Shown: positions 6,698 through 49,339 of the stretch, in pieces | Numbering within the stretch: the first letter of the stretch is position 1 | Layout: each line of letters opens with the position of its first letter | Assembly (NCBI GenBank): GCA_001972305.1 | Contig: BDDD01000316.1 | Span: forward strand, 62,001 to 126,000 | Direction: 5' to 3' | Length of the DNA: 64,000 nucleotides | DNA from: Cephalotus follicularis | Taxonomy: Eukaryota > Streptophyta > Magnoliopsida > Oxalidales > Cephalotaceae | The notes under the pieces: model-generated | What the model was told of the DNA's origin: nothing | What the model saw: the letters and a program-made list of their open reading frames with translations, nothing else | Database searches by the model: none | Program-made: the position numbers and the translations under genes

Positions 6698-7549
6698 AAC
6701 TAATCAAACTCAGTTAGGTTTTGTTTTTGGTTTGTGGTGGTTCTTTTGGATTAATTTTGTGGTTGTTTGTTGTTAAATACTGTCTAACCGTCGACGGTTT
6801 TGATTAAACCGTCGACAGTTAGACGTTAAGCACTGACGAAGTGTTGTTAAGCGTTGGTGGAAACTATAAAGCACAGACAATATGGAATATGCGTCGACGA
6901 TTAATGGTTTAAGTGACGACTCTTTGTTTAAAGCACAGATGATTATGCAAAGCGTCGAACCACCGACGCTTATGTTAAAGCGTCGACGCTTTCAACGGGA
7001 CATACACGTTTTTTGGTATTATGGTATGTAATCCTTGTGGATGCTGGATTTGATTAATCTAGTGGGAATTATACTATGTTATGCCACGTATGATTTGGTT
7101 AGCCACCGAAAATTAAAATGGATATGTGTTCATTCAAAATTTATATTATATATTTTTTTTGGATGTGTATGCATGATGGTAAGCTATAAGACTTGACATA
7201 GATTTCAATTTCTTTTGTGGATGTTTAATTTGCTTTATTATTTTTATTTGGTTTGTAATTTGGTGGTCTGCGAGCACCTTAATTCCTTATCTTTTAATTC
7301 CTCTCTAGGATAGATTCTCTTCTCCCTATATTTGTATATTCTTCTTTGTTTTTTAAAATGTAATTTTATTAAAAGTTTGTAAGCAAAGAAGGAGGATCAA
7401 ATGGAGGTTGGAGAGGAAGATCACGGAAGTTGCAAGACAAAAATGAAGGCCATGAATGCATGGTTGTATATGTAATAAACTAGAATTAAATAGTTCACCC
7501 CTAGCCTAGCCATTTTATTTTATGTTGGTCATTGGTCCATACACGTCAT
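6698..7549 (+). other. Copia untranslated leader, first part, with TCGA-core palindromes
   Basis: No coding region. Between 6780 and 6995 there are several short palindromes with GTCGAC at the centre, including a perfect 14-mer at 6786-6799 (AACCGTCGACGGTT) and a perfect 16-mer at 6977-6992 (AAAGCGTCGACGCTTT). From about 7000 to 7549 the sequence is A/T-rich and matches, in inverted orientation, the leader of the older host element (about 17180 down to 16600). The leader is broken at about 7550 by an LTR fragment and resumes at 9871. Confidence 0.75.
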
Positions 7550-9870
7550 TGCACCCAAAACGGAGCTTGATCCAAAATACATTATCCAGTATCATCATAA
7601 GTCAAGTAACCGGAAAATGCAGTACACAACACCTAAAGGGACATAACCCCTAGTAAAGACGTTATCAAAACTTGTAGTTCATCCATACTGATTCCCAAGC
7701 CTGTCCACTGCATCAATCTGTAAAGTAGGGGGTTAGCCTTTGTCCTCACTCGGCTAAGAATAAGTGCACATGGGATCAACATTAAATGCATGTCATGTAA
7801 TGTATGCATAGGTGATGCAGTGCAGTAGAAATACCAGTTTATATATATGAAAATATATATAAGTTTAACAGTACAGTAAAATAACAGTAGGAACATATAT
7901 GTGAAAATATATGTATGCAATAACAGTACAGTAGTAACCCGGCCAAGGCTACATCAACAAGCACAGTACTGTCCTAAAAGGACCAACAAACAGTATGGTA
8001 TGTCCAAATAGGGACCACAAACAGGCAAGCAGTATGTACAATGCCGCCAACTCCTGGCCCCATGTTGCACTCCCACTTCGGTCCCTTCTCCAGGCAACCA
8101 AGCAAGACAACAGTACAGTACAGTGAGTTACCCAGCCAACTCCTGGCCCCTAGGTCAACCCTGCCACTAGTCAACGCTGGCAGTCCCCGCCATGCAACTA
8201 TTACGTCTCAAGCACAAACACAGTAAATTCACAAAGCAAGCACAGTGAATAGTCACAGTAAACAGTTCAGTAACAGTACAGTAATGATCGTTAGATCAAC
8301 AACAGGCAGTTCATTTAAAAATCTTTTTGAAAGTCGTAAACATTTGAAATATGTATTTACAATAGATAGAAAATACGTTAAACAGTTTCAGTACTGGAAA
8401 TTGCTTTCCCAGTATGTTCAAAAATATAACAATACTCATTTTATATTTTCGTACTCAAACATAGTAGTTTTCAAACTCATATGTGCATTTCTAAATTAAT
8501 ATAACAATTTATAAATCATAACAGTTCATGAACGGTTATTAAACAGGCAGTAAAAAGTACATATGCAATGCATACAACTGCTCAAATGCATCCTAAGCGA
8601 AATCGGGATCATCGGGTGTCAAAATCGTAAAAACTGTCCAAACAGGACCCTAAAGCGTCGACGTTTTTCCCATGGGCGTCGAAGCTTATGTCCTCTAAGC
8701 GTCGACATTCTGTCCCATAGCGTCAGCGCTTTCCAGTGCCTAGGCATTGATGTCTCCTCCCATAGGCATCGACGTTTAAAAAGCATTCAGTAAATAATAC
8801 GCAATTTACAGTATAAAGCGCCAACGCTTACCAAAGGCGTCGACATTTTCGAGTGTCGGTCGTCTTCTTCCTCACAACATGGCAAACCAGTAACATTTCC
8901 AACACAAGAACATGCAATCCAACATGTATAAAGCCCAAAAAACTGACATGCAACATCATATTACACATCCAGTACAACATGGCATAAATTTAGTGACCAA
9001 AAACAGTTCAACAGGTCATGCAATCTATGCATGAACATCACTGATCAAACACCAAACATTGAACACAAAATACAATTATGGCTTCCCCTACCTTTGAACC
9101 CTGAGTTAGGAGTTGCACTCCACCTCTTTAAGTCCTGGAATCTGGTCACAGTAGCCTCAAGGTTCGTCCTCCACTGCCTGCCACAAGCTCCAAGCTCCAA
9201 AATGGTCAACAATGGTGGTTCCTCTCTCACTTTCACTTTCTGTTTTCTTACTCTAGTGTTTTAGCCAAACCAAGGACAAAGAGAGGAGCATTTATGCTTT
9301 GGGCAACCCTCTCTCTCCTTCTCCATTTCCGTTGCATGCATTTCCCATGTCCCATTTCCCCTATTTCCCAGTTTTTGTTCTTTTCCTCTAACTTTCTACC
9401 ATTGTAGGTAATGAAACCATATTCCCTTGCATGCAACTACTAAGGCCACTTGCTTGGATGACTGGCGCCTTGCTAGCATGGCTAACACGTTTCATGTGCA
9501 TGTGAAGGTGCCAGGAAGGTGATATACACTTGTCCCTTGCCCCACGTCTTCTGTCAGGGCATAAACATGTCTGATATTAGACGCTAAGCGTCGATGTTCA
9601 CATCCAGGCGTCGATGCTTATGTGTTTGAATTAAGTGCGCGTTTTAATTGCTTAGGCGTCGACGCTTCACTCAAGGCGTCGACGCTTTAGCCTCAAAACT
9701 ATGCCGTTTTGACTTAATTTTACACTTTATCATTTCCTCTTCCAAAATCAACATTATAAGAGTTTGGAAAACATCATCAAAGCCAGGAATTTCATTATTC
9801 TCATTAATTCCATGATAAGGTTACATCAAAAATTAAATTATTACAATGCATGAAAATCCCGGGCGTTACA
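7550..9870 (-). mobile_element. Truncated solo LTR, gypsy family of 37144-39112, minus strand
   Basis: Read on the minus strand the LTR begins at 9870 (TGTAACGCCCGG) and follows the solo LTR 37144-39112 block by block. Shared landmarks are the start, the GTTTTGAGGYTAAAGCG block, the hairpin TTAGCC/GGCTAA (7734-7758) and the AAAACGGAGC block near 7558. About 200 bp of its 3' end are missing, together with about 400 bp of the flanking copia leader, so one deletion took both and no TSD can be seen. There is no internal region, so it was a solo LTR. GTCGAC-type palindromes cluster at 8650-8850 and 9580-9690. Confidence 0.8.
7734..7758 (-). promoter_or_regulatory. Conserved LTR hairpin, stem TTAGCC/GGCTAA, 13-nt loop
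   Basis: Stem arms at 7734-7739 and 7753-7758 flank a loop of exactly 13 nt that reads GAGTGAGGACAAA on the element strand. The same structure is found at 26528, 33067, 38683 and 40879. Role unknown. Confidence 0.65.
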
Positions 9871-10115
9871 GGATTGGATCCTGAGCAATGTAAATTGGCA
9901 GGTGAGCATACCTATCTTAGGTGTTATGGTTTGTCAAGCTATAGCTGAGGCCATAATATGTTGAGATAGATTCCAATCCCCACTAGGAGATTAGATCCCC
10001 CAAATTCCACAGGATGTGTGGGATACGATTAGAATAGTGGGAGGAACCATAAGCACTAAAGACCAAGTGTTATGGTAGTAACATGATAAATGGAATATTT
10101 GCTAATAACCTCTAA
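9871..10115 (+). other. Copia leader, second part
   Basis: Non-coding sequence between the solo LTR and gag. It is inverted and related to 15956-16160 of the host element; CCAAGTGTTATG near 10066 is the complement of the host sequence at the copia insertion point. It ends with TTTCCTATAGGTTG just before gag. Confidence 0.65.
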
Positions 10116-10934
10116 ATGTTTCCTATAGGTTGTGTATACTTTGCGAACATGCCTGTCAGCATCGCTATTACTAGAGTCTTAGAGACTAATAAATTGGCTG
10201 GGTCAAATTTTCTCGATTGGCAGCAAAATTTGCTCCTTATTTTAGGAAGCTTAAATGTTTCTCATGTTGTGATTGAGGCACCCTTGGTACTGGGTACCAA
10301 CCCCTCTGAGGACCTCAAGGCTATGGTGGCCAAGTGGTGGTTTGACAATGACCGAGCATGTTACCTAGCGATTGAAGGCATGATTCCTGAATTGCAAAGG
10401 CAATGTGAGCATTTACAGACCTTACGTGCCATTCTAATACGTCTCAATGAGTTGTATGGCACACAGTCTAGGACTGATGAGGAAGATTTTGACCTTGATG
10501 GGTTGAACTCGTCTGTAATACCTCTTCCATTTTATGGAACGACCTCTGAGAGGGGTAGTTCCAAGGGTAAGACTCTAATGGAGAGGCCGCTTGGTCGAGG
10601 GGGTGCTACTAAGAGTAGGATTCAATGGCTTAAAAGGAAGAGGGCTTTCTTCTTCTGTGAAAAACAAGGATATTGGAAAAGTGACTGCAAAGAGTTTCTT
10701 GTTTCCACTGCTGGTGCCTCTAGTTCAGGTACCTACATGATTGAGCTTCATATAGCTTCTAATATTAGTTCTAGTTGGGTGTTAAATATTAGTTCTAGTT
10801 GGGTGTTAGACACTGGTTGTGGTACTAATATTTGCAATTCTTGGCAGGGCCTAAGAAACGCAAGGCAGCTTAGAGCTGAAGAAGCAGTGGACCTAGACTG
10901 GGTGATGGATCAAGGATCATTACTAGAGTTGTAG
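10116..10934 (+). pseudogene. Copia gag and start of protease, degenerate
   Basis: A 272-codon open frame. Residues about 16-70 resemble the start of a copia gag (TNKLAGSNFLDW). The middle of the capsid region is largely missing: the frame goes from LNELYGTQSR directly into an acidic and glycine-rich linker. Near residues 185-200 a zinc-knuckle-like segment (FFFCEKQGYWKSDCKE) has lost its first cysteine. The protease catalytic motif D-T-G follows in WVLDTGCGTNIC, preceded by an exact 24-bp tandem duplication (10761-10808) that repeats NISSSWVL. Gag would form the particle and the protease would cut the polyprotein. The frame ends early in the protease. Confidence 0.85.
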
Positions 10935-11238
10935 GATTTTATGATTTACATTTGCCTCATGGTTTTGTAAACAGTTTGAATCCCTGTTATTTGGTTGAGA
11001 ACTTAATTCGGAACATTGTTAGTATTTTGTACCTATTTAAATTGGGCTTTGAGCTTAATTTTAATGTGAATGGTTGTTCTCTTTTTGTCTAGTGACAAAA
11101 ATATCATATGTAATGGGCACATTGATAATGGAATTTATATTTTAAATACTGATCACAATATGGTATTGTCAATCGAGCAAGGAACTAAAAGACAGAGAGA
11201 ATAATGAAATAAATCAATCGTATACTTGGCATTGCAGA
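10935..11238 (+). pseudogene. Copia protease end and pre-integrase remnant
   Basis: One frame reads through about 10920-11095 as a protease C-terminal part (RVVGFYDLHLPHGF... NIVSILYL... NGCSLFV) and stops at TAG. After a short break, DNGIYILNTD resembles the pre-integrase segment. A further gap leads into WHCRLGHP at about 11230, the start of the integrase zinc-binding region. Similarity is clear but the frame is broken. Confidence 0.65.
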
Positions 11239-11796
11239 TTGGGTCATCCTAGTGAGTCAAGGATGTCAAAGTTGGTTAAGGATGGACTTTTTGACATCCA
11301 AGACTTAGAGTCTTTTCCAACATGTGAATCTTGCCTGCTTGGAAAAATGACCGATTCTCCCTTCTCCGGTCAAGGAGAGAGGGCGGTGGATATACTGGGT
11401 TTAATCCACACCGACGTCTATGGACCTATGTCGATCAGTGCCCGAGGTGGATATCTTTACTTCATTACTTTTACCGATGATTTGTCACGGTATGGGTATG
11501 TGTTTCTGATGAGACACAAATCAGATTCCTTTCAGAGGTTCAAGGAATTTAGAAATGAAGTAGAGAAGCAAACAGGTAAGCCCATTAAAACACTTCGATC
11601 AGATCAAGGGGGTGAATACCTTTCTGCTAAATTCCAGGATTATCTTAGAGATAATGGCATTCTCTCACAGTGGACACCTCCAGGAACACCACAGCATAAT
11701 AATGTGTCCGAATGGAGGAATCAGACCTTGAAGAATATGGTCCAGTCCATGATATCGTTTGCAGACCTCCCTTCCCCTTTTTGGGGTTATGCATAG
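11239..11796 (+). pseudogene. Copia integrase
   Basis: The frame starts in the zinc-binding domain (LGHPSESRM with CESCLLGK, giving His and Cys ligands) and enters the catalytic core. All three catalytic acids are visible: Asp in IHTDVYGP, Asp in RSDQGGEY, and Glu in VSEWRNQTL. It stops at TAG (11794-11796) inside FWGYA. The same frame continues after this stop. The protein would insert the cDNA copy into the genome. Integrase lying upstream of RT identifies this as copia rather than gypsy. Confidence 0.9.
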
Positions 11797-12228
11797 GAAA
11801 CAGCTGCATATGTCCTTAACTGGATTCCTTCGAAATCTGTTCCCTCCACTCCATACCAGGTATGGAGTGGGAGGAAACCCAGCCTAAACCATTTGAAGGT
11901 TTGGGGCTGTCCAGCTTATGTTAGTAGGTTGGAACCTAATAAGCTGGAGGCACAATCGGATCGGTGACGGTTTATAGGGAATCCCAAAGAATCAATGGGA
12001 TATTATTTCTACCATCCCAGCGAACAAAAGGTTTTTGTTTCGCGTAATGCTATTTTCCTGGAGAGGGAATTCCTACTCGCAGGAAGCAGTAGGAGTAAAG
12101 TGGAACTCGAGGAGTGTCCACCGGGATAAACACCACAGAACGGAAAGGAATTAGAGGCTGGTACCTCTAGGGACACAGCTGGAATTAGATTCCAGCATAA
12201 GATTAGATCTCATACAGGCACTCCTATA
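11797..12228 (+). pseudogene. Copia integrase C-terminal region and linker to RT
   Basis: Reading on after the TAG gives ETAAYVLNWIPSKSVPSTPY, WSGRKPSLNHLKVWGCPAY and YFYHPSEQKVFVSRNA, the typical copia integrase C-terminal region. It is interrupted by a TGA near 11966 and a TAA near 12127. It joins the RT region in the same general frame. Confidence 0.75.
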
Positions 12229-13845
12229 TTGAGGAGATCATGCAGAGTTTCAACAGTGCCCAAGAGATACGGTTTTCTCGTTGAAGGCACTGATGAACCC
12301 AACATCATCAAGGATGATGAGCCTGCCAGCTATCAGGAACCAGTGCAAGGCACTGAATCCGAGGCATTGTTAGATGCCATGAAATCTGAGATGGATTCCA
12401 TGTATGCCAACCAAGTTTGGAACTTGGTCAAAGCTCCCGAGGGCATAGTTCCTATTGGTTGCAAATGGATCTTCAAGAAGAAGATTGGCACAGATGGAAA
12501 GATTGAGACAAACAAAGCGCAATTGGTGGTGAAAGGGTATAGACAGCGACATGGTGTCGATTATACCAAAACTTTCTCACCAGTTGCTATGCTCAAATAT
12601 ATTCGAATTTTGCTTGATATTGCCGCTCATTATGATTTTGAGATATGACAAATGGATGTCAAGACTGCGTTCTTGAAGAGGACATTTATATGTCCCAACC
12701 CCAGGGGTTTACATCCATTGAAACTTCGCACCATGGTGTGCAAGCTTCAAAGGTCGATTTATGGCCTAAAGAAAGCATCTAAGAGCTGGAACATACGTTT
12801 CGATGAGGGTATTAAGTCTTTTAGTTTCGTTAAAAATGTCAATGAGCCTTGTGTCTACCGGAAACAGGATAACTCAGGCATCACTTTCTTGGTACTATAC
12901 GTGGATGACATTCTACTCATTGGGAATGATGTAGGGATGTTGAAATCCATGAAAGTATGGCTAGCCAAGAACTTCTCCATGATGGATTTGGGAGAAGCCT
13001 CCTACATACTTGGTATAAAGATCTATAGGGATAGATCTAGTAGGTTGCTTAGGCTTTCCCAAAGCCAGTACATAAGCAAAGTTCTGAAACGGTTTAGTAT
13101 GGAGAATTCCAAACAGGGCTTATTGCCCATAGGCCGTGGAATTAAACTTTCTAGGAAGATGTCCCTGCAGACATCTGAGGAAATGATAGCCATCAGTCTG
13201 ATGCCTTATGCTTCGAATGTAGGATCGATCAGGTATGCCATGCTGTGTACTAGGCCTAATGTGGCACATGCATTGGGTATGGCAAGTCGATTTCAGTCCA
13301 CTCCTAGTATGAAACACTGGGAAGTAGTCAAGGGTATCCTTATGTACCTTAGACGGACTCATGATGCTTTCTTGATCTACAGTGGAAATAGCGAGTTGAA
13401 ATTGGACGGGTACACTGACTCCAGTTTCAATAGTGATCCGGATGATCACAAATCAGTGTCGGGATATGTCTATATCCTGAATGGCGGTGCTGTGAGTTGG
13501 ACAAGCCCAAAACATGACACTACAACAGACTCCACTACGGAAGCAGACTGTATAGCAGCCTCAGATGCTGCAAAGGAGGGTGGTGTTTGGATGCGTAAGT
13601 TCACAGCTGAACTTGGAGTGGTGCCAACCATTAGTCGTCCTGTAGTTCTCTACTTTGACAATAATGGGGTTGTTGCACAAGCCAAGGATTCCAAACATAT
13701 CCAACGGCGTTATCACTTGATCCGTGAGATCATTGACAGAGGAGACATAGTGTTAGAGAGGGTTGCCTCAGAGGAAAATATAGCAGACCCACTAACTAAA
13801 GCTCTTTGTAGTAATGTATTCGAGCGTCATGGCTTCGTGGCTTGA
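12229..13845 (+). pseudogene. Copia reverse transcriptase and RNase H
   Basis: Two frames in register are separated by a single TGA at 12646-12648. RT motifs in order: PIGCKWIFKKK, ATAF-type VDYTKTFSPVA, the catalytic Asp in MDVKTAFL just after the stop, and YVDDILLIGND with the paired aspartates. The RNase H domain shows Asp in YTDSSF, Glu in STTEADCIAAS and Asp in YFDNNG, followed by QRRYHLIRE and the end IADPLTKAL. The stop at 12646 falls where a Trp codon is usual. Apart from this stop the second part (397 codons) is open. Confidence 0.92.
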
Positions 13846-13861
13846 GGGCCAAGTGGGAGAC
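13846..13861 (+). other. Copia polypurine tract
   Basis: GGGCCAAGTGGGAGAC, directly after the RNase H stop and before the 3' LTR, is the usual plant copia polypurine tract. Confidence 0.85.
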
Positions 13862-15955
13862 TTTTAGAGAGACTGTGACCCGTCAAGCCACTAGGTGGCT
13901 GGATGTACATACATTCTGCTCATATAATATACAGTCTTGTTCTATCCATGTTACATTGTGCAAATTATATTTTATTCATGACATAACTGTATATGTTTTA
14001 TCACATAATTGAAGCATATCACTACTTACATATATGATGCCCTATCACATCAAAGGGTTGGTTGTCAAGCCAAGGGCTATGAAAGAGACTTCCTTATTCC
14101 CTATGACTAAATTGTTCCAATTCATAGGTTCACTTATTTTGGGAATTAGTGAACCGGATAGACTTGTCGTGTTATGCTTGCTCTCGCGAATAGGAGGGTG
14201 GAGTATCTCATTGCCACTTGGGTTGAACCCTAAAGCTAATACGGGGTGCGTGCTGGGAGCACGTACACTGAACTTGACCCACCATGGAAATTCTATTTGG
14301 ATGGTCACATATCCCGTGTCAATAGAGTTTCCCATCTGAGACAGTAGTGTATAGACTCAATGAGTCTAGCAAGTTCTTAGAGGACTGGTCTGATCCTTAG
14401 ACCTGAGCGACTACTGTACATTGCATAGAGATTGTCTGACTTTTATTTCTGCCCTACCCAGTTCTTTCGCGGGACTGGAAAATAGGCAGCTTTTAGGTCT
14501 TGCAGGATTTATGTGAATGTAAGTGAGTTCGCAACATGTGATCATCACACCTGATGTGATGGTGATTAGCTCTGTAGTATCTGTATTCATTGTGAACTTT
14601 GAAATACCTGGCCAGGTTATGACTAGCCGGAACCTATGGTTTCCAGAAAGGCTTATCGATAATCATGATGGTAATTATAGATTTATAGATTCTGGCATAT
14701 CTAGGGTTGACACGTATCCTTACCCTAGGCCTTGATCGGAGCCGAGGATGACGAGGGATTATAGTACACGGTAACTGTCGTCAGGATAAAGTATTGGATG
14801 TATCAGAAACGGACTTAATTATGGAAATTAATTAAGGGATTAATTTGCACACCTACAATATGATGGTCATAGGTTCAAGGTCTTAAAAATAGTCAAGGAC
14901 TATTTATGGTTAAGTTACTTAAAAGCAAGGCGTCTTAGTAACATACCATCGTTACTGATTTAATTCCAGACTTTCGGGTCTCGCCTCACGAGTATATGTA
15001 TTGGATACATATAACGTATAGTTTTATAACGTGTGATGGCACATGTTATATTGTGGTGCATTAGAGATGTTACGTGACTGATTAGTTGACGAAACATACT
15101 AATATCATTATGGTATTAAATAATAATTTGATTATTATTCTCTTATCTCTCTAACTCTCTCTTGCTTGGTTGCATGGCTAGCTGATTTGGAATGAAGATT
15201 GCATGATGAAAGACGCGTGCAGTTTCTCTGTATGGAAAGCAACACGTTTTCTTGATATGGAAACTCGTATGTCATGCAACAACAAAATGGAAAAGCCATA
15301 TGTCTTGTCTTTTAGAAAAGGATATGGCACCAAGGATGAGAACCGGGATTTGTATTCATGGAATGAAATCCCATTAACACGTTTTTCATTATGGATGGCT
15401 TAATGGTGATCCATATTTGGGGGATCACATCATTGGATGCATGAATGCATAAGAGAGAGGGAGAACACGTTTTCTAAAGACTGGAATGTACCTCGACATC
15501 TTGCGTAGTAAGATAGAGTTTGGCATTTAGTTCTCAAAGAACAAAAGAGAAAAGAGTGAAAACTCAATACCATAACAGCATAGCTTGATTTCTACAGGTG
15601 GTGTACTACTTTCATTGAGAACTACTTCTCCTATATTGATCTTAGTATAACATTAGACATATAGGATTTGTTTCGTTATTACGCTGCTGTCTATTCCTGA
15701 GTTAAAACTTTAAGTCTCAGAACGGATTCTTGAAGCAAGGAGTTGGTTGCTTGGTATAATCTCTATTTTTCTCAATATGTATATAAGTGATTGTTTGATT
15801 GGGTTGTTGATTGGCGATCCTAGGTTGTTTGTGATCATTTATGGAGTTATATTATAGGATGTTATTTATTTTGGAGCCACTTTAATGAAAATTAAAGTTA
15901 TACATCCTATGTACCTAACGTCTAAAATGGCCATAAACTCGGTATTATTCTTTCA
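13862..15955 (+). repeat. 3' LTR of the copia element
   Basis: It aligns end to end with 4589-6682. The first base pair has decayed from TG to TT, and the end ATTCTTTCA is intact. It is followed by the TSD CATAA at 15956-15960. Confidence 0.93.
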
Positions 15956-18558: not shown

Positions 18559-18778
18559 TGTGACGCCCCAAATTCCTTTCTGTGCTGTTCATGCATACCT
18601 TGTACTGTATCGTACCGTATTGAATTGTATTGAATCGAATTGTATTGTACTGACTTGTACTGGACCGTATTGTATTGTATCGGCATGAAATAAATATGTA
18701 CTTATCGATTATAGTATGGAACGTATGCATGTATAGTCGGGATTTTGGACTATGTGTCGAAGAGATAAGGAAATTGAC

Positions 18779-18786
18779 TGTATAAG
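18779..18786 (+). promoter_or_regulatory. LTR TATA-like box
   Basis: TGTATAAG here corresponds to TATATAAG at 26051-26058 in the 3' LTR copy, followed by a pyrimidine-rich patch (CCTCCCTCTTTTTCTCTC). This is the most likely promoter of the element. It would place the palindrome array about 0.5 kb downstream, inside the transcript. Confidence 0.6.
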
Positions 18787-19289
18787 TCAATGTCCTCCCT
18801 CTTTTTCTCTCATTTTTCCCCACAATCTCCCTCTCTCTACCTTTCTCCTCCCCTCTCTTAGCTAGACAGCCTTCATCCTTCATCTAGTAGCTCCGGTTTG
18901 GCTTCTTCCATCAACAAGATAGAAACTGCAAGCTGTGGCTTACCAATTGAACAATAAAGGAGAGGATTCTTGGGAATTTCCAGCCTTGGATCGATTGCTG
19001 CTCAATTATTGAAGCTGCTATTTTAGGTAGGACTTCTTACTTGAATTGCCTACTACTTGTATAGATTGATTGATTGAATTCAATGATTGTATTGAGTGAA
19101 TTATAGGTTCTGGGGTTTTTTATTAAATCCTTAGCAAAATTGATATAGAAAATGATAGAATTTGTAAATTGAAGGTAGTAACTTGTCTTACTAACCTTAA
19201 ATGATTGATTTTAACACTTGGTTTTTAAAGAATAGGTTTTAAAGGGTTTTTGACCTGGGATTTGGCTATTTTTCTGCATAAAATCGACC

Positions 19290-28983: not shown

Positions 28984-29010
28984 AAGAAAATTCGTCCTCA
29001 AATTTAGCCT

Positions 29011-37143: not shown

Positions 37144-39112
37144 TGTAACGCCCAAAAATTTCATGTGTTGTAATTTCACAATGTAAATGTACTTTATTTG
37201 GAGAATTAATAAAAAGATGGATTTTTCAGATTTGATGATATTTTCCCAAACTCTGATGATGTAGAATTTGGAATCCAATTGTTAGATTAATGTTAAAAGT
37301 GTAATTTAGTTAAATGGCACAGTTTTGAGGTTAAAGCGCTGACGCCTGGATTTATAGCCTCGATGCTTAAGCCGTTGAAACGCGCGTTTAAACTCAACAC
37401 ATTAGCGCCAACGCCTGCATGTAAACGTCGACGCTTTGAGGCGTGTTTTGCATATACATAATAGCAGATGGACGTGTCACAGGGAGGTGATTTTGTGACA
37501 CTTATCAAGCATCTTAGCAGGCGCTTAAGAACGTGGAAATGCATGCTTTTGTTGCCAGACTTACCTGCAACAAAAAAGCCTTGAATAGAGAAAGAATCTC
37601 TGAATGCATGGCCTGTGGAGAAGAAGAATGCAACACCTGTTGCACCCAGCTTGCATGAAGGAGAGGGGCTAAACTGGTGGGTTTTGGTAGAGAGAACAAA
37701 CGTTTTCTGCATAAAAGTCAACCCTCATCTCTTAACCATGGTTGTTACTGATAAAGAAAGCACCTCAGACTTGAGAGAAACACAGAGAGTGGAAAAGAGC
37801 AGGAGAGCTTGAGAGTGGAAGCTCAACCACCATTGTTGAGCAAAGGGGAGCTTGGAGCTAGCACACCAACTACTGGGATGAACCAGGGAGCTTTCAAGCC
37901 GTACCTGGGGACTCAAGTGACTTATTGGATACTAAAAGATGTGGACCTTCGGCTTCTCACTTAAGGCCTGAGGTAGGGGAAGCCATAATTGTACTTTGTG
38001 TTCAATACTTGATGTATGTTCAGTGATGTTTATGCATGAATTTCATAGCTTCATGATCCATTTATAGTCACTGAAATGATGCTACCTTGTACTGGATGTG
38101 TCATATGATATTGCATGGCCGTTTTCTGGGCTTTATACATGTTGGATTGCATGTTACTGTTATGGGAGTGCCACTATTTAGTCATGTTGTGAGGTAGAAG
38201 ACGACCCCTGCTTGAAGTCGTCGATGCCTAAGTAATTACCGTTGATGCTTAATACTGTGAACTGCGTTTTATATGTTGGAAGCGTTAAACGTCGACGTCT
38301 AAAGGGAGGAGATATCGATGCCCAGACACTGGAGCAGGGACCGAAGTGGGAATGTAGCATGGGGTCAGGAGTTGGTGGCGTTACATATACTGCCTGACTG
38401 TTGTGGTCCTTTATGGACATATTGTACTGCCTGTTGGTCCTTTTCAGACATTACTGTGATTGTGGAAGTGATTCTGGCCGGATCACTACTGTACTGTTCT
38501 TGCATACATATGTTTTCTTATATATGTTCCCACTGTCATTACTATCATTTTTACTGTACTGCTAAAATATATATATTTCTCATATATATATATATATATA
38601 TATTGGTATTTTCTGCACTGCATCATTTATGCATACATTACATGACATGCATCTAATGTTGATCCCGAGCTACTTTTATGACTTAGCCGAGTGAGGACAA
38701 AGGCTAACCGCCCCCTACTTTACAGATTGATGCAGTGGACCCGTTGGACTGGCACGGACGAAGAACAAGATGTTATGTTGTTTTGTTCTTGGTTTTTACT
38801 TATTCTCCTGTTTTGTAATAAACCGGGTTTTGTTTAAGTACCAATGTGTTGTACTTATGGTTTTGTCCAATGGTGGGATTTAATCTTCTACTGTGATCAC
38901 GCTCCGTTTTGTGGGCTATTTATAATGACGGACTTCTACTGGGTAGCGTGCAGTATGGGATGCACGTTACATGTTTTCAGCTTATGAATCTTATGCTTCC
39001 ACAACTGATATCTTGTTATAAGTTTAAATTTTATGTTATTTGCATAAGCTGTATTTATATGTTATTTGCCTATACAACTTAAATGTTGTCTTACCAAAAC
39101 GGGGGCGTGACA
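37144..39112 (+). mobile_element. Solo LTR nested in the solo LTR
   Basis: Starts TGTAACGCCCAA, ends GGGGCGTGACA, and is flanked by GCAAT on both sides (37139-37143 and 39113-39117). Length 1969 bp, no internal region. It is the same family as the truncated minus-strand copy at 7550-9870. Palindromes occur at 37330-37435 and 38210-38320, and a TA microsatellite near 38580. Confidence 0.92.
38683..38707 (+). promoter_or_regulatory. Conserved LTR hairpin, stem TTAGCC/GGCTAA, 13-nt loop
   Basis: Arms 38683-38688 and 38702-38707. Loop GAGTGAGGACAAA, identical to the copy at 7734-7758. It lies about 400 bp from the LTR end. Confidence 0.65.
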
Positions 39113-40878
39113 GCAATGTTTTGCGTGGTTTGATCATAATGAAATGTGTTGTATGTGCAGTGTGTGTGGAAATTGGATTCGGTAGTGGAAAGGATCAATT
39201 AGCAAGAACCGGCTTCGGTTCAACGGTTATTGGAAAGGTTCGGCAATTGAACCTGCGGCTCGACTGTGCTGTTGCTGCTACGACTCCTAACTTGGAATCA
39301 GAGGAAGGGGTAATAGTAGGGCATTTATACTTGCTTATTTGAGTTCAAGAATGATGTTTATCATTGATGAACTACGTGAACTTTGTGGATTGAATTGCAT
39401 GCACGTTTTGGGATGATTTTACCTTGGTGTGTGAATGGTGTGATTGTGTTAGGGTTGCTATGAGTAGCTAACCTGCCTTGCATTTTGTGATTGAAATGAT
39501 TGTGGATCGAATTGCATGTGTAATTATGCATGTTGACCTCTTGGTATTGAACGTGTTGAAGAAGAAGATGTTTATGATCTTCTCTAATCGCCGATGCTTA
39601 GATGATAAGCGTTGACACTATGGACTGTTACGTGTAGGAGTGTGTACTGACTTCACGATAAACGTCGATGCTGAAGGAAATCGTTGACATCTTGGTTCGA
39701 ATATGCGTAGTGATGGACACGTGGATGTTGATGCTTGAGGTCCTACCTCAAAGCGTCGACGCCAATGAACGCTGACGCTCAAGGATCCTTACCTTGAAGC
39801 GTCGACGTCAAGGACAATTGTTGACACTTGGGTTACTGGTTAAAGCGCCGACGCTTAAAGGGTATACGAGCTGACGCCTAGGGTTAAGCGGCAATGCTTA
39901 AGTAACTAATATGATCGATTTGGTGACTAGAGGTTAGGTATCGACGCCGAAAGGGTCGGGTTGCATTTTGAGCATATGTTTGCTTGCATATTACTATGGG
40001 TTTGTCGAGCTTTCCTCTCCTTGTGCCGGTTAGCGTCGATGTAGGTATGGATTGAACTGTGAACTGAATTGTGAATTCAAATGTGATTGAATTCTAAAGT
40101 GTTTTATCATTTTAGAAGTGCATACATGATTTTATAACAAATCATTATTTTACACGAAAATGTATATTTGTTAAATGTATATTTTCGAAGGATGGAAACG
40201 TGATTTCAAAGACTGTTTACATTTTGAATAAATGTATTATTTCAAGTATTTTATAACTTATGAATTACTTGGAAAGGATTTATTTTTGGATTGATTGAGC
40301 TTTCCTAGCACCATGGGACGGTTAGTCGTGTGCTTTCCTAACTCGGGGCCGGTTAGCATCAATGATTGAATTGTTTGATTGATTGTGATTGTTACGCTGT
40401 TAGTGCGGTGACGGAGGTTGTCACTTACGCTAATGGCAGGTTGTGCGTTGGGGGCCAGGAGTTGGCAAGGACACCACACCGGATGGTCTTCCTCCGCTAT
40501 GTGCCGGTTGACATCCACACTATGAGCTATCCTCCGCCTATGTGCCGGTTAGACTCATTTGTTTGTTGAACTTTCCTCCGCTACGTGCCGGTTAGTGTCA
40601 ATTATTGATAGAGCTTTCCTCCGCCTATGGGCCGGTTAGCATCGACGTGAGATAATACTAACCTACAGGTGGTGGTTATCGAATACTGATTGAATTGATT
40701 GGTCCTTAGTGACATGACTGATGGATTGTGTTGATGTAGCCACTTGGCATGGTTGAGTAACTACTGATCGAGATACATATACAAATACATATTGTATATA
40801 TATTGTATTGCATCATTATGCATTCATTACATGATTTACATTATTGTTGATCCCGAAAGGTATTTATACTTTCTCTAC

Positions 40879-40903
40879 TTAGCCAAGTGAGGACAAAGGC
40901 TAA
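40879..40903 (+). promoter_or_regulatory. Conserved LTR hairpin, stem TTAGCC/GGCTAA, 13-nt loop
   Basis: Arms 40879-40884 and 40898-40903. Loop AAGTGAGGACAAA, followed by CCCCC. It belongs to the outer solo LTR. Confidence 0.65.
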
Positions 40904-41441
40904 CCCCCTACAATTTCAGATTGACAGGGGCAATCGGACCAGTGCTGCTGAAGCTGTGTTGGAAGCTTCTTTCCTGAATGTTGTTTTAATTGTATTGTAT
41001 TTTAATAATCATACTCGTGTTTTAAGAGAATGATGAGATGTGCTTGTTAAGAATTATCAGTTGGATATTGTATCAATCGGTTATTGAAATGATGGAATCT
41101 AGTACTGGATTAATGTATAATGGTTTATGACTTTACTAATTTGGGATAATATATCATCGTATTTGATGGATAATCATTAAGTATGGATTATGTATTAATG
41201 AAATATTGTATCGACATGTCTTAATCACGCTCCGTTTTGAGGGCAATTAACAATGAAATGTCATATTTTGGTAACACGTAGTATGGGATACGTGTTACGT
41301 TGTTAATTCGGCTTATAATTGAATGCTTCCGCAAGTTATTAATCGTTTTGAAAGTTTTAAATTTCCACATAAAATTGTATAAGCCGGATATTATGTTGAT
41401 TGCTACCATTATTATTGTTGTTATGGCAACGTGGTGTGACA

Positions 41442-42217: not shown

Positions 42218-44195
42218 TGTAACACCCCCGGACGGCGGGAGTCGTCACAGGGTCATATCATACATATCATAACTTAACAAACTCATAAATTTGCTTTACT
42301 AGCCAAAAACAGTCGAAAACGTGGCAGTCATATCAAAACATTTAAAACTTAACATATTAAGTAGTTGCGGAAAACTCAAAACATAGTTCAGTTCCAATTT
42401 AACACACAAAACATAAAAATCCATGTTTCAGACCACTAAACATAACATAAGGATCACTCTCCTAAGGATCCAATACATAGGGTGGTCATCACTCAATCAC
42501 ACTTTCCCTCGCTGCTCCAGAAAACCTGCCGCATGGAAAACAAAAAAATACGCGGCTGGGCAAACCTCAGTACGGATAAGGGAATCAAAACAGTAAACGG
42601 TAATTTAAAAAACATTATCATTTCAATAATAACGTAACAGAAATCTTTAACAAATAAAACAGTTTAATCATATTCAAATGACAGTTACATAATTTTTGAA
42701 ACAATTACGAAACATCGAAATCATAATTGTTTAAAACATACTGAGCCATATTCATATCACATGTTATAAATTTTGGCAAGGGAGGCGCTAATTCCACATG
42801 GCCACTAGAATTGAAGTGTACGGCACTACACAAGTCAATTCTCACATACATATATCCGATCACACCTCGGACCATATATCTGAATTCACCTCAGATCACA
42901 TAAACTAGAATCGATTCATACGCCTCTATCACATAGCGGATCCACAAATCCACCTCATGGGATTCGTTCATACACTCAGAGACGTCGTAGTCTAATCACA
43001 CAGCTACGGAAGTGTCACGTCGCCATGCCAGGCCCACGACGTGCCTATGGATACGCCCCATAGGTGGGTACAATACTCAGTATTTAATTTAAAATAATTG
43101 ATCTATCAAAATCAACTTAAATCACATAATTATGTTTTCACACAACATATTCAAAAACTGCTCACAACAGTATATAACATATCATATCATAACATATCGT
43201 ATCTTAACATATCGTACCATAACATATTATATAGATAAAGTCTGAATCAATTAAGATGTCAAACCAACTTTAAATTCAAAACGTATCAAAATACTGAAAC
43301 ATCATTGATTTCTTAAATGAAGATGCTTGTCAAAACAGTTTTAGTTTGAATGTCAGATAGCCAAGGAACAGAAAATCCGTACCTTATGCGCTTGCAAAGC
43401 ACTTACGAATAGACAATTTTAAATGGAATCCACTTGAAACTCAAAAATCTATAAATACATTCAAAATCATATGTATAAGAGTCTAAAACACATTAGAAGC
43501 ATTAAACAGACTCATAAAAGTGTTTGGAAAAGATTCGGATCGATTCGGGGGTCAAACGAATCAAAACAGTTGAAAACATCACATTCCAGGGCATAACGGT
43601 CGACTAGAATAGGGGTCCAGTCAACTGGAGAGGCTTGGCAGTCGACTGGATCATATGAACAGTTGACTACACAACCCAAAAATACAGGTAGTCGACTACA
43701 CAACAATTCCAGTCGACTGTCCGCTCAGACAGCCGACTGTTCTGGGTGACAGAACAGTTGGAAATCCGACGATTTGCTGCTGAAAATGGTTCAAATGATT
43801 TCTACAATAAACTAGAGACATATGGACATAAACATATGATTATATATGACTTTTAGGTGACTTTCAAACACAAATTTGACAAAGAAACGACCTTTCCATG
43901 ATTTAACTTGAAAAAGGAAGTAAGGAGACATTGCATGAACATGTCCAGATTCTGTGTTTTATTAAATACAGATGTTATAAACTCAGTTTGTGACATATAT
44001 AGGTGCATAAAACGTGCAGATAACATTACTAATACAATGGCAACATGTTTAGACAAGAATCAAAGACCCCAAGACACCAAGAGCACAAAAACTCAAAGTA
44101 AGCCATTGAAACAAAACTACAATTAAAGGGAATGAATTCACTAACCTGTAGTGATGTTAAGAAACCCAGAAAACAGTACGAAGAACACAAACACT
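42218..44195 (-). repeat. Gypsy III 3' LTR, distal part
   Basis: Starts TGTAACACCCCCGG on the plus strand and matches 46806-48617 closely, except that it keeps about 170-190 bp (near 42800-42970) absent from the other copy. It stops abruptly at ...AACACAAACAC, where another LTR end begins. CAGTCGACTGG-type palindromes cluster at 43600-43740. Confidence 0.88.
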
Positions 44196-44646
44196 GTAAC
44201 ACCCCCGGACGGCGGGAGTCGCACAGGGTCGTGTCATAACATAACTTAACAGATCATACATATATGAGCATATACATTTCTTAACAAATCATAAGTTTGC
44301 TTTTATTAGCCAATAACAGCCGAAAACATGGCAGTCATATCAGAACATTAAAACTTAACATTTAACATATTAAGTGGTTGCGGAAAAATTCAAAACATAA
44401 TAAAGTTCCAATTTAAAACATAAAACATGAAAATCCATGTTTCTGACCACTAAACATAACATAAGGATCACTCTCCTAAGGATCCAACACAAAAGGGTGG
44501 TCATCACTCATTCACACTTCCCCTGCTGCTTCTGAAAACCTGCCGCATGGAAAACAAAAACGCGGCTGAGCAAACCTCAGTACGGATAAGGGAAAATAAA
44601 ACAGTAAATGGTAATTTAAAAACGTCAATATTTCAATAATAACGTA
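44196..44646 (-). repeat. Third LTR copy, terminal 451 bp only
   Basis: Begins TGTAACACCCCCGG like its neighbours but differs from both at many positions (for example CGTGTCATAACATAAC and CATACATATATGAGC). It ends at the junction with RT sequence near 44646. Probably the leftover of a sibling element inserted into the gypsy III LTR. Confidence 0.75.
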
Positions 44647-44975
44647 AAATCATCAATCCTAGGTAGCGGGTATTTATTCCGAACAGTGATTCAGTTCAAC
44701 TCTCTGTAGTCTATACATAACCTCATAGACCCATCTTTCTTATTCACAAAAAGAACCGGAGCACCCCATGGCGAAACATTAGGCCGAATGAAACCCCGAT
44801 CTAACAGCTCTTGCAATTGTTCCTTCAACTCTTGCAGTTCCAACGGTGCCATTCTGTAAGGTGCCTTAGATATAGGTGCCGCCCCGGGAATGAGTTCGAT
44901 GGTAAACTCCACTTCCCGTTGTGGTGGCAAACCCGGTAACTCTTCCGAAAACACATCAGAAAATTCTCGCACCAC
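44647..44975 (-). pseudogene. Gypsy III reverse transcriptase, N-terminal part
   Basis: Reads [47 protein letters not shown] and LCIDYRELN. After a TGA (near 44688) the same frame gives NKYPLPRIDD and then breaks at about 44646 into LTR sequence. The catalytic centre, RNase H and integrase are gone. It is in the same frame as the gag and protease upstream. Confidence 0.9.
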
Positions 44976-45104
44976 AGGATAGTCTTAAAGGTGAGGCTCA
45001 ACCTTTGAGACATCCTTCACAACAGCTAAGAAACCTTCAGCACCGTTAGCTACCAACTTCTGAGCTTTCAAAGTGGATATAACTTTCACTTCTTTCCTTG
45101 GCTG

Positions 45105-45585
45105 TCAACCCTGAAAAACAAAATCAGGGCTATTCACATCCCCAAACAAAACTCTCCGAGCATAGCAGTCGGTCGTAGCCCAATGACGATCCCACCAGTT
45201 CATTCCCAAAATCATATCGAAGTCGTACATATCGATAGGCAAAAGATCCGCATCACGAACCCGATCATCAAAAACAAGAGGACAAGCATAAAAGCACTCA
45301 GATATCACAATAGATGAACCCGTAGGGGTTGAAAGAACCAAATCTGGATCAAGCAACTGAGAAGACATCCCAAGACGCTGAACAAAAGACCTCGCTACAA
45401 CCGAGTGGGTCGATCCAGTATCATACAAAACATAAGCTCTACGGTTACCAACATAAATGAAGCCCGAAACAGTACCTGGTGCGTTAGCTGCCCGCTGAGT
45501 CGTGATAGCAAAGACACGACCTCCCATGTTGCGCTGTCCACGATCTGCATTGTTTTCCTTCCTTTCTTTTGCACGAGGGTCAGGA
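45105..45585 (-). pseudogene. Gypsy III aspartic protease
   Basis: The catalytic D-T-G is intact in AYVLYDTGSTHSVVA (around 45422), followed by LPIDMYDFDMILGMNWW. The frame continues from gag without a shift and stops at TGA (45105-45107) in the protease-RT linker. It looks the most intact of the gypsy proteases here, but sits between stops. Confidence 0.88.
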
Positions 45586-46628
45586 CAATCCTTCACGAAG
45601 TGCCCTTTTTGTCCACACACAAAACAGGCCCCGATCGCCTTATAGCATACTCCCACCGGATGCTGTCTACCTCACACTTCACATTTGGAAATCTGGACAT
45701 CCGCAGCTCCCTGTGTCTGCCTTTGGTCATTACCGGAATGTTGCTGTCCCCGGTAATCATTTCTCTTCCCACGCTTACCATTCCTATACTTATTCTGTCC
45801 AGAACCTTGCCCCTGAGAATCACCTCTATTTCTCTTTCTGTCAAACTCCTGTCGAGCAGCCTGGAAATCTAACCTTTCCAGCTCAATGTTCTTTGCCGCA
45901 TTAGCCACTTCAGATATATCAGCAAACCTGGTGTTGATAAATTTACCCCGGAACTGGTAGTGTAACTTCCATTTGAACTTTTCTGCCTGTTCCAATGCTG
46001 TTCCTACAGCGGACCCAGCAAAACCAGCAAGCCTAGTGGATCGGGTCAAGAACTCTGTCACTGACTCTCCATCCTTCTGTCTGGTATTGACAAACTCTCT
46101 GGCGTAAGCCTCCTTATCAGCGGTGGGAAAATATTGCTGATAAAAGACCTCGCAAAATTTAGACCAGGTCAAAGTCTCTGCATAGTTGCCACCCTTAGCC
46201 AAAACCACAGCTTTCCACCATTTCTGAGCATCACCCTCAAGCTTGTATACAACTAACTTAATCTTCTGTTCATCACTGCAACCAAGCACATCAAATATCT
46301 TGTCCATATTTGCAATCCAGTACTCAGCTTCCACCGGAGTCATGGCTGAGCTGAAAGACTGCGGCCTCTGCTTCTGGAACCGCTCAAGCCAAACATAAGT
46401 GGGCGTAACGGTCCTGTCCCCAGCATCTCTTCCCAACTGGACATCAGCTGGAGCATCATTAGCAGCAACCGGCTCCCTACGGTCCTGATTCTGATTCTAT
46501 TCATTCAATGCGCGCCGTATCTCCTGAGCAACTGCCTGACGTACGAGCTCCTCCATAGTAGGCTCATTTCTAGCTTCCTGAGCCTCAACGGGTGCAGTCC
46601 TCCGAGCAGCATTCCTTGTACGTGCCAT
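45586..46628 (-). pseudogene. Gypsy III gag
   Basis: ATG at 46628 (MARTRNAARRTAPVEAQEA). A TAG lies near 46501. The capsid domain follows (YVWLERFQKQRPQSF, KIFDVLGCSDEQKIKL, YKLEGDAQKWWKA, FYQQYFP, REFVNTRQKDGESVTEF). Then a Lys/Arg-rich linker and two zinc knuckles: the first, CEV-stop-GRQHPVGVC, has a TGA in place of a cysteine (45669-45671), and the second, CFVCGQKGHFVKDC, is intact. Gag, protease and RT share one frame. The first ten residues resemble the histone H3 tail (see findings). Confidence 0.9.
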
Positions 46629-46788
46629 CTACGAAAAGATGCTCAAACATAAAACATCACCCGGAACAAAACAGAAAGCAGAAAACCGAAAACATATCAG
46701 AAGATCATAAGCGAAACAGCCTAACCAGGTGTCTACCCAATCTCACAGGTCAAACCTAGTTAGGTCTTCTAAGGAAACAAAACCTATA
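46629..46788 (-). other. Gypsy III leader
   Basis: About 160 bp between the primer-binding site and the gag start. Nothing recognised in it. Confidence 0.7.
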
Positions 46789-46800
46789 TCTCTGATACCA
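46789..46800 (-). other. Gypsy III primer-binding site
   Basis: The complement reads TGGTATCAGAGA, five bases from the LTR end (GTTACA on the minus strand). Confidence 0.88.
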
Positions 46801-46805
46801 CAATC

Positions 46806-49339
46806 TGTAACACACCCGGACGGCGGGAGTCGTCACAGGGTCATATCATACATATCATAACTTAACAAACTCATAAATTTGCTTTACTAGCCAAAAACAG
46901 CCGAAAACGTGGCAGTCATATCAAAACATTTAAAACTTAACATATTAAGTAGTTGCGGAAAACTCAAAACATAGTTCAGTTCAAATTTAAAACAAAAACA
47001 TAAAAATCCATGTTTCAAACCACTAAACATAACATAAGGATCACTCTCCTAAGGATCCAACACATAGGGTGGTCATCACTCAATCACACTTTCCCCCGCT
47101 GCTCCAGAAAACCTGCCGCATGGAAAACAAAAAAAAAATGTGGCTGAGCAAACCTCAGTACGGATAAGGGAATTAAAACAGTAAACGGTAATTTAAAAAA
47201 CATTATCATTTCAATAATAACGTAACAGAAATCTTTAACAAATAAAACAGTTTAATCATATTCAAATGACAGTTACATAATTTTTGAAACAATTACGAAA
47301 CATCGAAATCATAATTGTTTAAAACATACTGAGCCATATTCATATCACATGTTATAAATTTTGGCAAGGGAGGAGCTAATTCCCCGTAGTCTAATCACAC
47401 AGCTACGGAAGTGTCACGTCCCCGTGCCAGGCCCACGACGTGCCTATGGATACGCCCCATAGGTGGGTACAATACTCAGTATTTAATTTAAAATAATTGA
47501 TTTATCAAAATCAACTTAAATCAAATAAATATGTTTTCACACAACATATTCAAAAACTGCTCACAACAGTATATAACATATCATATCATAACATATCGTA
47601 TCTTAACATATCGTACCATAACATATTGTATAGATAAAGTCGGAATCAATTAAGATGTCAAACCAACTTTAAATTCGAAACGTATCAAAATCATGAAACA
47701 ACATTGATTTCATAAATGAAGATGCTTGTCAAAACAGTTTCAGTTTGAATGTCAGATAGCCAAGGGACAGAAAATCTGTACCTTATGCGCTTGCAAAGAA
47801 CTTACGAATAGTGAATTTAAAATGGAATCCACTTGAAACTCAACAATCTATAAAGACATTCAAAATCATATGTATAAGAGTCTAAAACAAATTAGAAGCA
47901 TTAAACAGACTTATAAAAGTGTTTGGAAAAGATTCGGATCGATTCGGGGGTCAAACGAATCAAAACAGTTGAAAACAGCACATTCCAGGGCATAACAGTC
48001 GACTAGAATAGGGGTCCAGTCGACTGGAGAGGCTTGGCAGTCGACTGGATCATATGAACTGTCGACTACACAACCCAAAAATGCAGGTAGTCGATTGTGT
48101 TCTTCAATCCAGTCGACTACACAACCATTCCAGTCGACTGTCCACTCAGACAGCCGACTGTTCTGGTCGACAGAACAGTTGGAAATCCGACGATTTGCTA
48201 CTGAAATTGGTTCAAATGATTTCTACATTAAACTAGAGACATATGGACGTAAACATATGATTATATATGACTTGTAGGTGACTTTCAAACACAAATTTGA
48301 CAAAGAAACAACTTGATGGTGATTTATCTTGCAAAAAGGAAACAAGAAGACATTGCATGAACATGTCCAGATTTTGTGTTTTATCAAATACAAATGTTGT
48401 AAACTTAGTTTGTAACATATATAGGTGCATAAAACGTGCAGATAACATTACTAACACAATGGCAACATGTTTAGACAAGAATCAAAGACCCCAAGACACC
48501 AAAAGCACAAAAACTCAAAGTAAGCCATTGAAACAAAACTATAATTAAAGGGAATGAATTCACTAACCTGTAGTGATGTTAAGGAACCCAGAAAACAGTA
48601 GGAAGAACACAAACACAGACACACAATCTGGCTGTGAACAGAAACAAAGAAAGAAGAATACAAAACCATGGTATTTTTAGACATACATAGCAAACTAAGA
48701 GAATTTAATTCAAGGAAGCAATTAAAGGATTGAGATTACCTCTTGAACTTTGAAGAATGATTTACACAGCAGAATATTGCACAATAACAAGGCAAATTCG
48801 GAGTGGTTTGCAATAAGGATGGTGGCATCATATAAAAATGGCAATGGCACTCAATAATGAAGAAAGGGGGAGACAAGATTTGACAAAAGGGAAGAAGATG
48901 GGAACTTTTCTGGATTTAGATATAGAAAGGAAGCTTTAACATGTGAATTGATAGTGGGAATTGCTGGAAAGAAGGAGATGGTGGAAGGAAGTAGGAAGAA
49001 AGTTGAAGAAAATGCTAAAATAAGAAAAAAGGAAATAAAATGAATTAATAATAAAATGAATTAATAATAAAATGAATTTGGAATTATAAAAATTAAAAGA
49101 ATAATAATTGTTTTTAATAAAATAAGTTTTGGATTAAAATAAGAATTTATAAAACCCAACATAGCATAACATACCCAAATTTCGGACCGGTATCATTCCG
49201 CACAATCACATAAACCCGATCATAGGACAACCGGACTTTTAAAATTAAACAAAATTAAAAGCCCGAAAACACATACAAAATCCATAAAATATATTTATGA
49301 ACCCGTAAAAATACATTTATGAACGAACAGGGTATTACA
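46806..49339 (-). repeat. Gypsy III 5' LTR (2534 bp)
   Basis: On the minus strand it runs from TGTAATACCCTG at 49339 to GTGTTACA at 46806. Palindromes of the form CCAGTCGACTGG cluster at 47990-48180 (a perfect 12-mer at 48016-48027). The region near 47120-47160 holds a decayed GCCGC/GCGGC hairpin seen intact in related copies (42529-42556, 44542-44566, 51109-51131). Confidence 0.9.

What the first reader, a model, noticed from the sequence alone, without database searches (positions are those of the whole stretch)
6780..48180. TCGA-core palindrome clusters shared by unrelated LTR families
Clusters of short inverted repeats with TCGA at the centre occur in at least seven families here, copia and gypsy. 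Examples: AAAGCGTCGACGCTTT (6977-6992, copia leader), AAAGACATCGATGTCTTT (19371-19388 and 19552-19569, gypsy LTR; again 35405-35770), CCAGTCGACTGG (48016-48027, gypsy III; also 43600-43740). Further clusters lie at 8650-8850, 9580-9690, 27320-27510, 28690-28815, 33640-33830, 34755-34870, 37330-37435, 38210-38320, 39590-39960 and 63680-63715. The flanks differ between families while the symmetry is kept, so simple sequence exchange does not explain it. Degenerate copies often differ by C to T or G to A, as expected of methylated CpG decay. Possible roles (inference): binding sites for a dimeric host factor, RNA hairpins or dimer sites, or a methylation-related signal.
Basis: seen in the sequence. 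Interest (0 to 1): 0.8.

Follow-up and report, generated by a model that had tools for sequence, protein, structure and literature searches.

The report
Phased palindrome arrays in plant retrotransposons
Several unrelated families of jumping genes in one plant genome carry clusters of short mirror-image DNA sites set about 21 base pairs (two turns of the helix) apart, which looks like a shared docking platform for an unidentified paired DNA-binding protein.

Summary
TCGA-centred palindromes exceed dinucleotide-matched shuffles ten-fold in the window (25 vs 2.5) and nine-fold in 200 kb from elsewhere in the same 1.58-Gb genome (73 vs 8.0). The family list needs correcting: most clusters sit in gypsy LTRs of one general type, including two that lie inside the copia leader interval. 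One array (6786-6992) is truly copia and recurs in other copies of that family. A gypsy IV-like element may carry a third. Genome-wide there are 48,687 CAGTCGACTG pairs (reversed control 166) and 4,236 GCGTCGACGC pairs (control 7); of the pairs listed, 57 of 69 and 41 of 50 are 19-22 bp apart. Arms vary independently, and AAAGCG/CGCTTT half-sites keep a 4-bp gap, which suits a DNA-binding dimer better than an RNA hairpin. Best reading: tandem operator-like sites for an unknown dimeric, probably host, factor. Closest known: Sirevirus palindromic repeated motifs. No protein is identified.

The parts
4589..15955 (+). copia A element: LTRs 4589-6682 and 13862-15955, flanked by CATAA, tRNA-Met-type PBS from about 6685
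6786..6992 (+). array of AAGCGTCGACGCTT-like units in the true copia A leader, about 100 bp after the PBS; pairs 21, 22 and 20 bp apart
   Evidence: recurs in other copies
7490..9870 (-). gypsy-type LTR (ends GGGCGTTACA; left end unclear) inserted in the copia A leader; carries the clusters 8650-8850 and 9580-9690
   Evidence: 72-80% to parts of 37144-39112
8653..8848 (-). array, second cluster of that LTR (gaps 21, 23, 45, 22, 71)
9586..9687 (-). array, first cluster of that LTR (gaps 20, 48, 20)
18559..21001 (+). gypsy I 5' LTR (right end read from sequence); its 3' LTR is split by nested insertions at 25831-26188, 35038-36137, 41471-42217 and from 49339
19300..19650 (+). gypsy I array AAGACATCGATGTCTT (gaps 21, 51, 19, 78, 22, 43, 19, 19, 41, 22)
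35424..35767 (+). the same array in the gypsy I 3' LTR
26189..35037 (-). gypsy II element, flanked by AACAA; LTRs 26189-28969 and about 32739-35037; chromo-like domain weak (E 0.005)
27360..27501 (-). gypsy II array, gaps 21, 43, 43, 21; copy at 33682-33823
28697..28819 (-). gypsy II array near LTR start; copy at 34765-34887
36160..41441 (+). solo LTR (outer), flanked by CACAC, inserted in the gypsy I 3' LTR; sense strand inferred from similarity to gypsy II
37144..39112 (+). solo LTR (inner), flanked by ATTGC, nested in the former; arrays at 37334-37436 and 38216-38300
39586..39899 (+). array of the outer solo LTR
42218..49339 (-). gypsy III, flanked by CTAGT; LTR pieces 42218-44194 and 46806-49339
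43596..43740 (-). gypsy III array CAGTCGACTG, gaps 21, 21, 71, 20
47995..48161 (-). gypsy III array, other LTR, gaps 21, 21, 72, 21, 20
63676..63715 (-). one unit plus a one-base-short unit about 21 bp away

Best explanation
The clusters are arrays of dyad-symmetric protein-binding sites in the non-coding control regions of LTR retrotransposons. Each site is two inverted half-sites (class 1: AAAGCG / CGCTTT) around a rigid 4-bp centre, most often TCGA. Sites are repeated at about 21 bp, two helical turns, so that neighbouring dimers sit on one face of the DNA and can bind cooperatively. The same architecture is used with three motif classes (AAGCGTCGACGCTT, AAGACATCGATGTCTT, CAGTCGACTG). SHOWN: excess, class 1 half-site gap, about 21-bp spacing, little-conserved spacers, independence of arms within the power of the test, presence in a copia leader family and in several gypsy LTR families, tens of thousands of pairs genome-wide. 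TENTATIVE: presence in the leader of a gypsy IV-like element.
For: Spacing: in the window 24 adjacent gaps of 19-23 bp vs 6.3 expected (max 16 of 20,000 placements), 11 at exactly 21 vs 1.2. In L005-L034, 49 adjacent gaps of exactly 21 and 19 of 20. Around 173 strong units TCGA lies at offset 21 in 75 cases vs about 1.7 per background offset. Genome-wide listed pairs: 40 of 69 and 22 of 50 at 21 bp. 11 of 12 single-linkage similarity groups have a 19-22 bp gap. Spacers: identity between units exactly 21 bp apart (19, 7 and 20 pairs) is 0.32-0.41 in spacers vs 0.78-0.93 in arms, background 0.26. Half-sites: AAAGCG..CGCTTT with at most 1 mismatch occurs 65 times at gap 4 and once over the other gaps 0-8; centre TCGA 32, CTGA 9, TCAG 6. 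Arms of neighbouring units chosen by a TCGA core alone show no covariation (p 0.36, 0.81, 0.52). Non-Watson-Crick pairs on the sense strand: 33 G-T, 27 A-C, 59 other. The gypsy II array with 21/43/43/21 spacing has no excess RNA structure (z -0.6).
Against: No binding protein, chromatin or expression data. Spacing is not a clean helical ladder: around strong units there are peaks at 48-51, 70-72 and 91 bp as well as at 42 and 63, 27-28 bp recurs in class 3 (12 of 69), and 19 bp is common in gypsy I (one 21-bp gap of 22 in its group). RNA structure is strong in four of five clusters. Copies of one family share ancestry, so units, gaps and genome-wide pairs are not independent events. Spacers are slightly above background, so some tandem duplication occurred. 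The covariation test has limited power (24-43 distinct neighbours per class), and in the motif-selected set copia A is borderline (p 0.065). Transcription starts are unknown, so positions relative to the promoter are inferred. A related copia element (A', about 75% identical over 473 bp of leader) has a GC-rich repeat, not these units, in its leader.
Confidence: 0.6

Rival explanations
1. Hairpin reading, as proposed for maize Sireviruses: the palindromes act in RNA, forming hairpins that feed small RNAs and silencing, or that serve RNA dimerisation or packaging.
For: Four of five clusters fold better than 60 shuffles each (z -3.7 to -12.8); maize Sirevirus palindromes are reported as small-RNA hotspots (passages in PMC5311732 and PMC10760457).
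Against: No significant arm covariation and no clear G-U excess; gypsy II array without excess structure; hairpins give no obvious reason for a spacing near 21 bp in classes whose palindromes differ in length.
Confidence: 0.17
2. Anti-silencing target arrays: a transposon-encoded, sequence-specific protein, as VANC for VANDAL elements, binds the arrays and removes methylation; motif classes reflect co-evolving protein variants.
For: VANC targets are dense short motifs in non-coding DNA that vary between related elements, and one unrelated element shares VANC6 motifs (PMC5735166 passages). Here three motif classes share one layout.
Against: No extra DNA-binding domain was seen in the 20 window frames and stretches scanned with Pfam, which was not an exhaustive search; VANC motifs as printed in those passages are not palindromic; one motif is shared by copia and gypsy, which fits a host factor better.
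Confidence: 0.12
3. No function: a 21-bp palindromic minisatellite spread by slippage, template switching and exchange between elements.
For: Local tandem duplication is evident in gypsy I (19-bp repeats); spacers keep slight similarity.
Against: Neutral decay should erode arms and spacers alike, but arms are 0.78-0.93 identical and spacers 0.32-0.41 (units were chosen by their arms, which inflates the arm value but not the spacer value); a 4-bp half-site gap is kept while the centre varies.
Confidence: 0.08
4. Methylation signal: T-CG-A centres recruit or repel CG methylation as such.
For: CpG in the centre of all three classes.
Against: Centres CTGA and TCAG lack CpG yet keep the arms; a CG mark needs no dyad or 21-bp spacing.
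Confidence: 0.03

Closest known systems
Sirevirus repeated motifs (RM), Bousios 2010, PMC2829016 (passages seen)
   Same: High-copy palindromic boxes clustered in LTRs of plant LTR retrotransposons, flanks diverged; two listed consensuses have a TCGA centre (Vitis CGGTCGACCG, Tnd-1 ACAATCGATTGT).
   Different: There called Sirevirus-specific among Ty1/copia elements and mostly CGG-CCG core; here gypsy LTRs and the leader of a copia that fails the Sirevirus tract test, cores CGTCGACG / CATCGATG / AGTCGACT, and a spacing near 21 bp that the passages I saw do not discuss.
Maize palindrome shared by copia and Helitron elements (PMC10760457 passages)
   Same: One palindrome in unrelated element types.
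   Different: Different motif; read there as RNA structure.
VANC target arrays of VANDAL transposons (PMC5735166 passages)
   Same: Dense short motif arrays in non-coding regions, varying among relatives, bound by a specific protein.
   Different: DNA transposons; motifs not palindromic as printed; the protein is element-encoded.
EBNA1 sites of the oriP dyad symmetry element (PMC3798644 passages)
   Same: Sites for a dimer, two sets of tandem sites 21 bp apart centre to centre; class 3 arrays here several times run 21-28-21 (listing).
   Different: Viral replication origin, unrelated sequence; an analogy of geometry only.

Membership tests
Sirevirus RM boxes | Carrier is a Sirevirus (copia; several AGGGGGAG tracts before the 3' LTR) | tested here: not met
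   Copia A pol frame ends about 16 bp before its 3' LTR (13845 vs 13862) and no AGGGGGAG lies in copia A; most arrays are in gypsy LTRs
Sirevirus RM boxes | Palindromic motif in at least eight copies per element | tested here: inconclusive
   gypsy I LTR 11 units, gypsy II LTR 8, copia A leader 6, gypsy III LTR 6 by the thresholds
Sirevirus RM boxes | CGG-CCG core | tested here: not met
   cores CGTCGACG, CATCGATG, AGTCGACT; Tnd-1 is an exception to this core in the paper itself
Sirevirus RM boxes | Cluster in the LTR upstream of the TATA box, within a CpG island | tested here: inconclusive
   gypsy arrays lie in the LTR, but TATA-like words are many, no CpG-island test was run, and the copia A array is outside the LTR
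VANC target arrays | Element encodes a VANC-like protein that binds the motif | not tested
   only selected frames were scanned; no binding data
EBNA1/LANA-type cooperative paired sites (works like, not member) | Dyad sites about 21 bp apart centre to centre | tested here: met
EBNA1/LANA-type cooperative paired sites (works like, not member) | Cooperative binding of two dimers | not testable with these tools
   needs protein
Chromovirus (Tekay/Del-type) carriers | Chromodomain at the integrase C terminus | tested here: inconclusive
   gypsy II Chromo E 0.005, below the curated cut-off; none found in the gypsy I frames scanned

The most novel reading that the evidence does not exclude
An undescribed dimeric plant DNA-binding protein assembles as cooperative dimer pairs, 21 bp apart, on control regions that two and perhaps three retrotransposon lineages (a copia leader family, several gypsy LTR families, possibly a gypsy IV-like element) use in common. 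The element types have settled on one host regulatory code with a small set of motif variants, copied tens of thousands of times in this genome.
Probability: 0.4. Interest if true: 0.85.

Novelty: new variant of a known kind. Interest (0 to 1): 0.7.

Why it matters
In the papers seen here, palindrome clusters in plant retrotransposons are described for Sireviruses and, in maize, read as RNA structure feeding small RNAs. A strict dyad, a spacing near 21 bp and arm independence point instead to a protein reader, and sharing between copia and gypsy points to a common host factor. That gives a concrete target: a pair of sites on one short DNA is enough bait to find the protein that may switch on, or protect, a large part of a 1.6-Gb genome's transposons.

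Tried and rejected
Rejected: (a) chance or composition. (b) Clusters as one recent shared segment: no flank similarity between the copia 6786-6992 array and the gypsy LTRs. (c) Symmetric CpG decay as the sole source of variants: many centres are CTGA/TCAG. Palindromic CpGs even mutate less than other CpGs (9 of 82 vs 73 of 304, Fisher p 0.0096; without copia A 9 of 82 vs 38 of 184, p 0.058), but the palindrome mask favours conserved copies, so I do not lean on it. (d) Known motif by text search: the listed part (30 of 176 papers) of a search for four palindromes showed nothing on retrotransposon LTR palindromes.

Led nowhere: Rfam at gathering scores (no match); viral contigs (no relatives); a paper search for retrotransposon palindromes with 21-bp or helical phasing (no paper with 5 of 6 terms; that search does not prove absence from print); Bousios 2016 on maize palindromes is not held and is known to me only from citing papers and recall. 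The centre pattern AAAGCGNNNNCGCTTT and the class 2 pair pattern could not be counted genome-wide because the server was busy.

Limits of sampling: L005-L024 come from round positions on eight contigs (L006 and L017 hold 2,178 and 3,723 N). L001-L004 and L025-L034 were fetched because they hold an exact class 1 site. In one search runs of fewer than 3 units and one centre (6956, 8 bp from 6964) were left out of the spacing permutation; 7705, 38746, 36848 and 6956 were left out of its unit list. The groups were joined by single linkage over 600-bp flanks, so nested elements merge (the copia array falls in a mixed group); 12 is a rough number, not a family count. In the covariation counts the motif-selected units are biased against coupling; avoids this.

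Full report
What was checked. The window is a nest of LTR retrotransposons, with no tRNA and no Rfam family at gathering score. It lies in a 1.577-Gb assembly, G000:C316:62001-126000. The three best protein relatives of the gypsy II RNase H frame are 89% identical and come from Cephalotus follicularis, so the host is probably that pitcher plant or a close relative; this is inference. TCGA-centred palindromes are ten times more frequent than in block-wise dinucleotide shuffles (25 vs 2.46). A similar excess appears in 200 kb taken from eight other contigs at round positions (73 vs 8.0). The exact 16-mer AAAGCGTCGACGCTTT occurs 3,552 times in the genome against 5 for the reversed control.

Where the arrays are. 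Copia A (4589-15955) has its own array at 6786-6992, in the leader just after the primer binding site. The other two clusters that lie in the copia leader interval are in an inserted gypsy-type LTR that ends at 9870. Two further cluster groups are in solo LTRs, one nested in the other, each with a matching 5-base flank (37144-39112 with ATTGC; 36160-41441 with CACAC), read from the sequence. Gypsy I, II and III carry arrays in their LTRs. The gypsy I and II pol regions align with each other (65-70%), and a short piece of gypsy III aligns with both, but the LTRs of the three gave no alignment with each other there. So the window shows two superfamilies and about six families.

The copia array is a family property. 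All 15 have at least one unit, and 13 of 16 including the window have four or more; one (L036) appears broken by an inserted LTR. 25 of 62 gaps between units are 20-22 bp. These copies share ancestry, so this shows membership, not independent origin. An older copia relative in the window (A') has a GC-rich repeat in its leader and none of these units. L009, whose pol is 74% identical to gypsy IV of the window, has units upstream on its coding strand, about 1.4 kb beyond the aligned stretch, and L008 and L025 have related stretches. I read this as a possible third lineage, but I did not establish that the array and the pol belong to one element.

The spacing. Successive centres lie about 21 bp apart: window, 24 gaps of 19-23 bp where 6.3 are expected; L005-L034, 49 gaps of exactly 21 bp; TCGA offsets around strong units peak at 21 (75), with smaller peaks at 42 (28) and 63 (13) but also at 48-51, 70-72 and 91. 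Genome-wide, perfect CAGTCGACTG pairs 10-40 bp apart number 48,687 (control 166) and GCGTCGACGC pairs 4,236 (control 7). In the listed pairs, 40 of 69 and 22 of 50 are at 21 bp; 57 of 69 and 41 of 50 at 19-22; the class 3 remainder is all 27-28 bp, the class 1 remainder is spread over 23-40 bp. Gypsy I is an exception, with many 19-bp steps and one 21-bp gap of 22 in its group.

What kind of site. Units exactly 21 bp apart share their arms (0.78-0.93 identity; chosen by them) but hardly their spacers (0.32-0.41, background 0.26). Class 1 half-sites AAAGCG and CGCTTT keep a 4-bp gap in 65 of 66 cases over gaps 0-8, while the centre is TCGA in 32 of the 65. The two arms vary independently within the power of the test (copia A borderline at p 0.065), and G-T and A-C mismatches are about equal on the sense strand (33 and 27). 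These are marks of two recognised half-sites rather than of a base-paired stem. RNA folding is nevertheless strong in four of five clusters, which palindromes give for free, so an RNA role is not excluded.

Comparison. The nearest known feature is the repeated palindromic motif of Sireviruses (PMC2829016), where two consensuses have a TCGA centre, but carriers and cores differ and the passages I saw do not treat spacing. The maize palindrome shared by copia and Helitrons (PMC10760457), VANC target arrays (PMC5735166) and the EBNA1 dyad symmetry element with two sets of sites 21 bp apart (PMC3798644) are parallels of logic or geometry. I saw passages of these, not the whole texts. The name Tekay/Del for the gypsy carriers is recalled, not tested; the chromodomain hit is weak.

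Verdict. The most likely mechanism is a tandem operator for an unknown dimeric, probably host, DNA-binding factor (0.6). It is a new variant of a known kind of feature: palindromic cis-regulatory repeats in plant LTR retrotransposons.

Noticed in passing
7731-7758 (+), 26526-26553 (+), 33065-33092 (+), 38682-38709 (-), 40878-40905 (-): A 28-base sequence GGTTAGCCTTTGTCCTCACTTGGCTAAG with inverted ends is nearly invariant (0-2 mismatches) across diverged gypsy-type LTRs, roughly 240-540 bp from one LTR end; perhaps a transcript-end or start signal.
   Followed up: partly
17240-17760 (-): Leader of an older copia relative (A') holds a GC-rich stretch with repeated TGCGTGC/GCACGCA words where copia A has its palindrome array.
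   Followed up: partly
62358-62899: Eight copies of a 68-bp tandem repeat inside gypsy IV shortly before its 3' LTR.
   Followed up: no
3590-4588, 15956-18558 and 50214-50750: Pieces of an older copia element on the minus strand, apparently split by the copia A and gypsy I insertions and lacking gag-pol.
   Followed up: partly
G000 class 3 pairs: Several class 3 arrays run 21-28-21 bp; the 27-28-bp spacer often holds ACACGCATCAG-like letters, unlike the variable 21-bp spacers.
   Followed up: no
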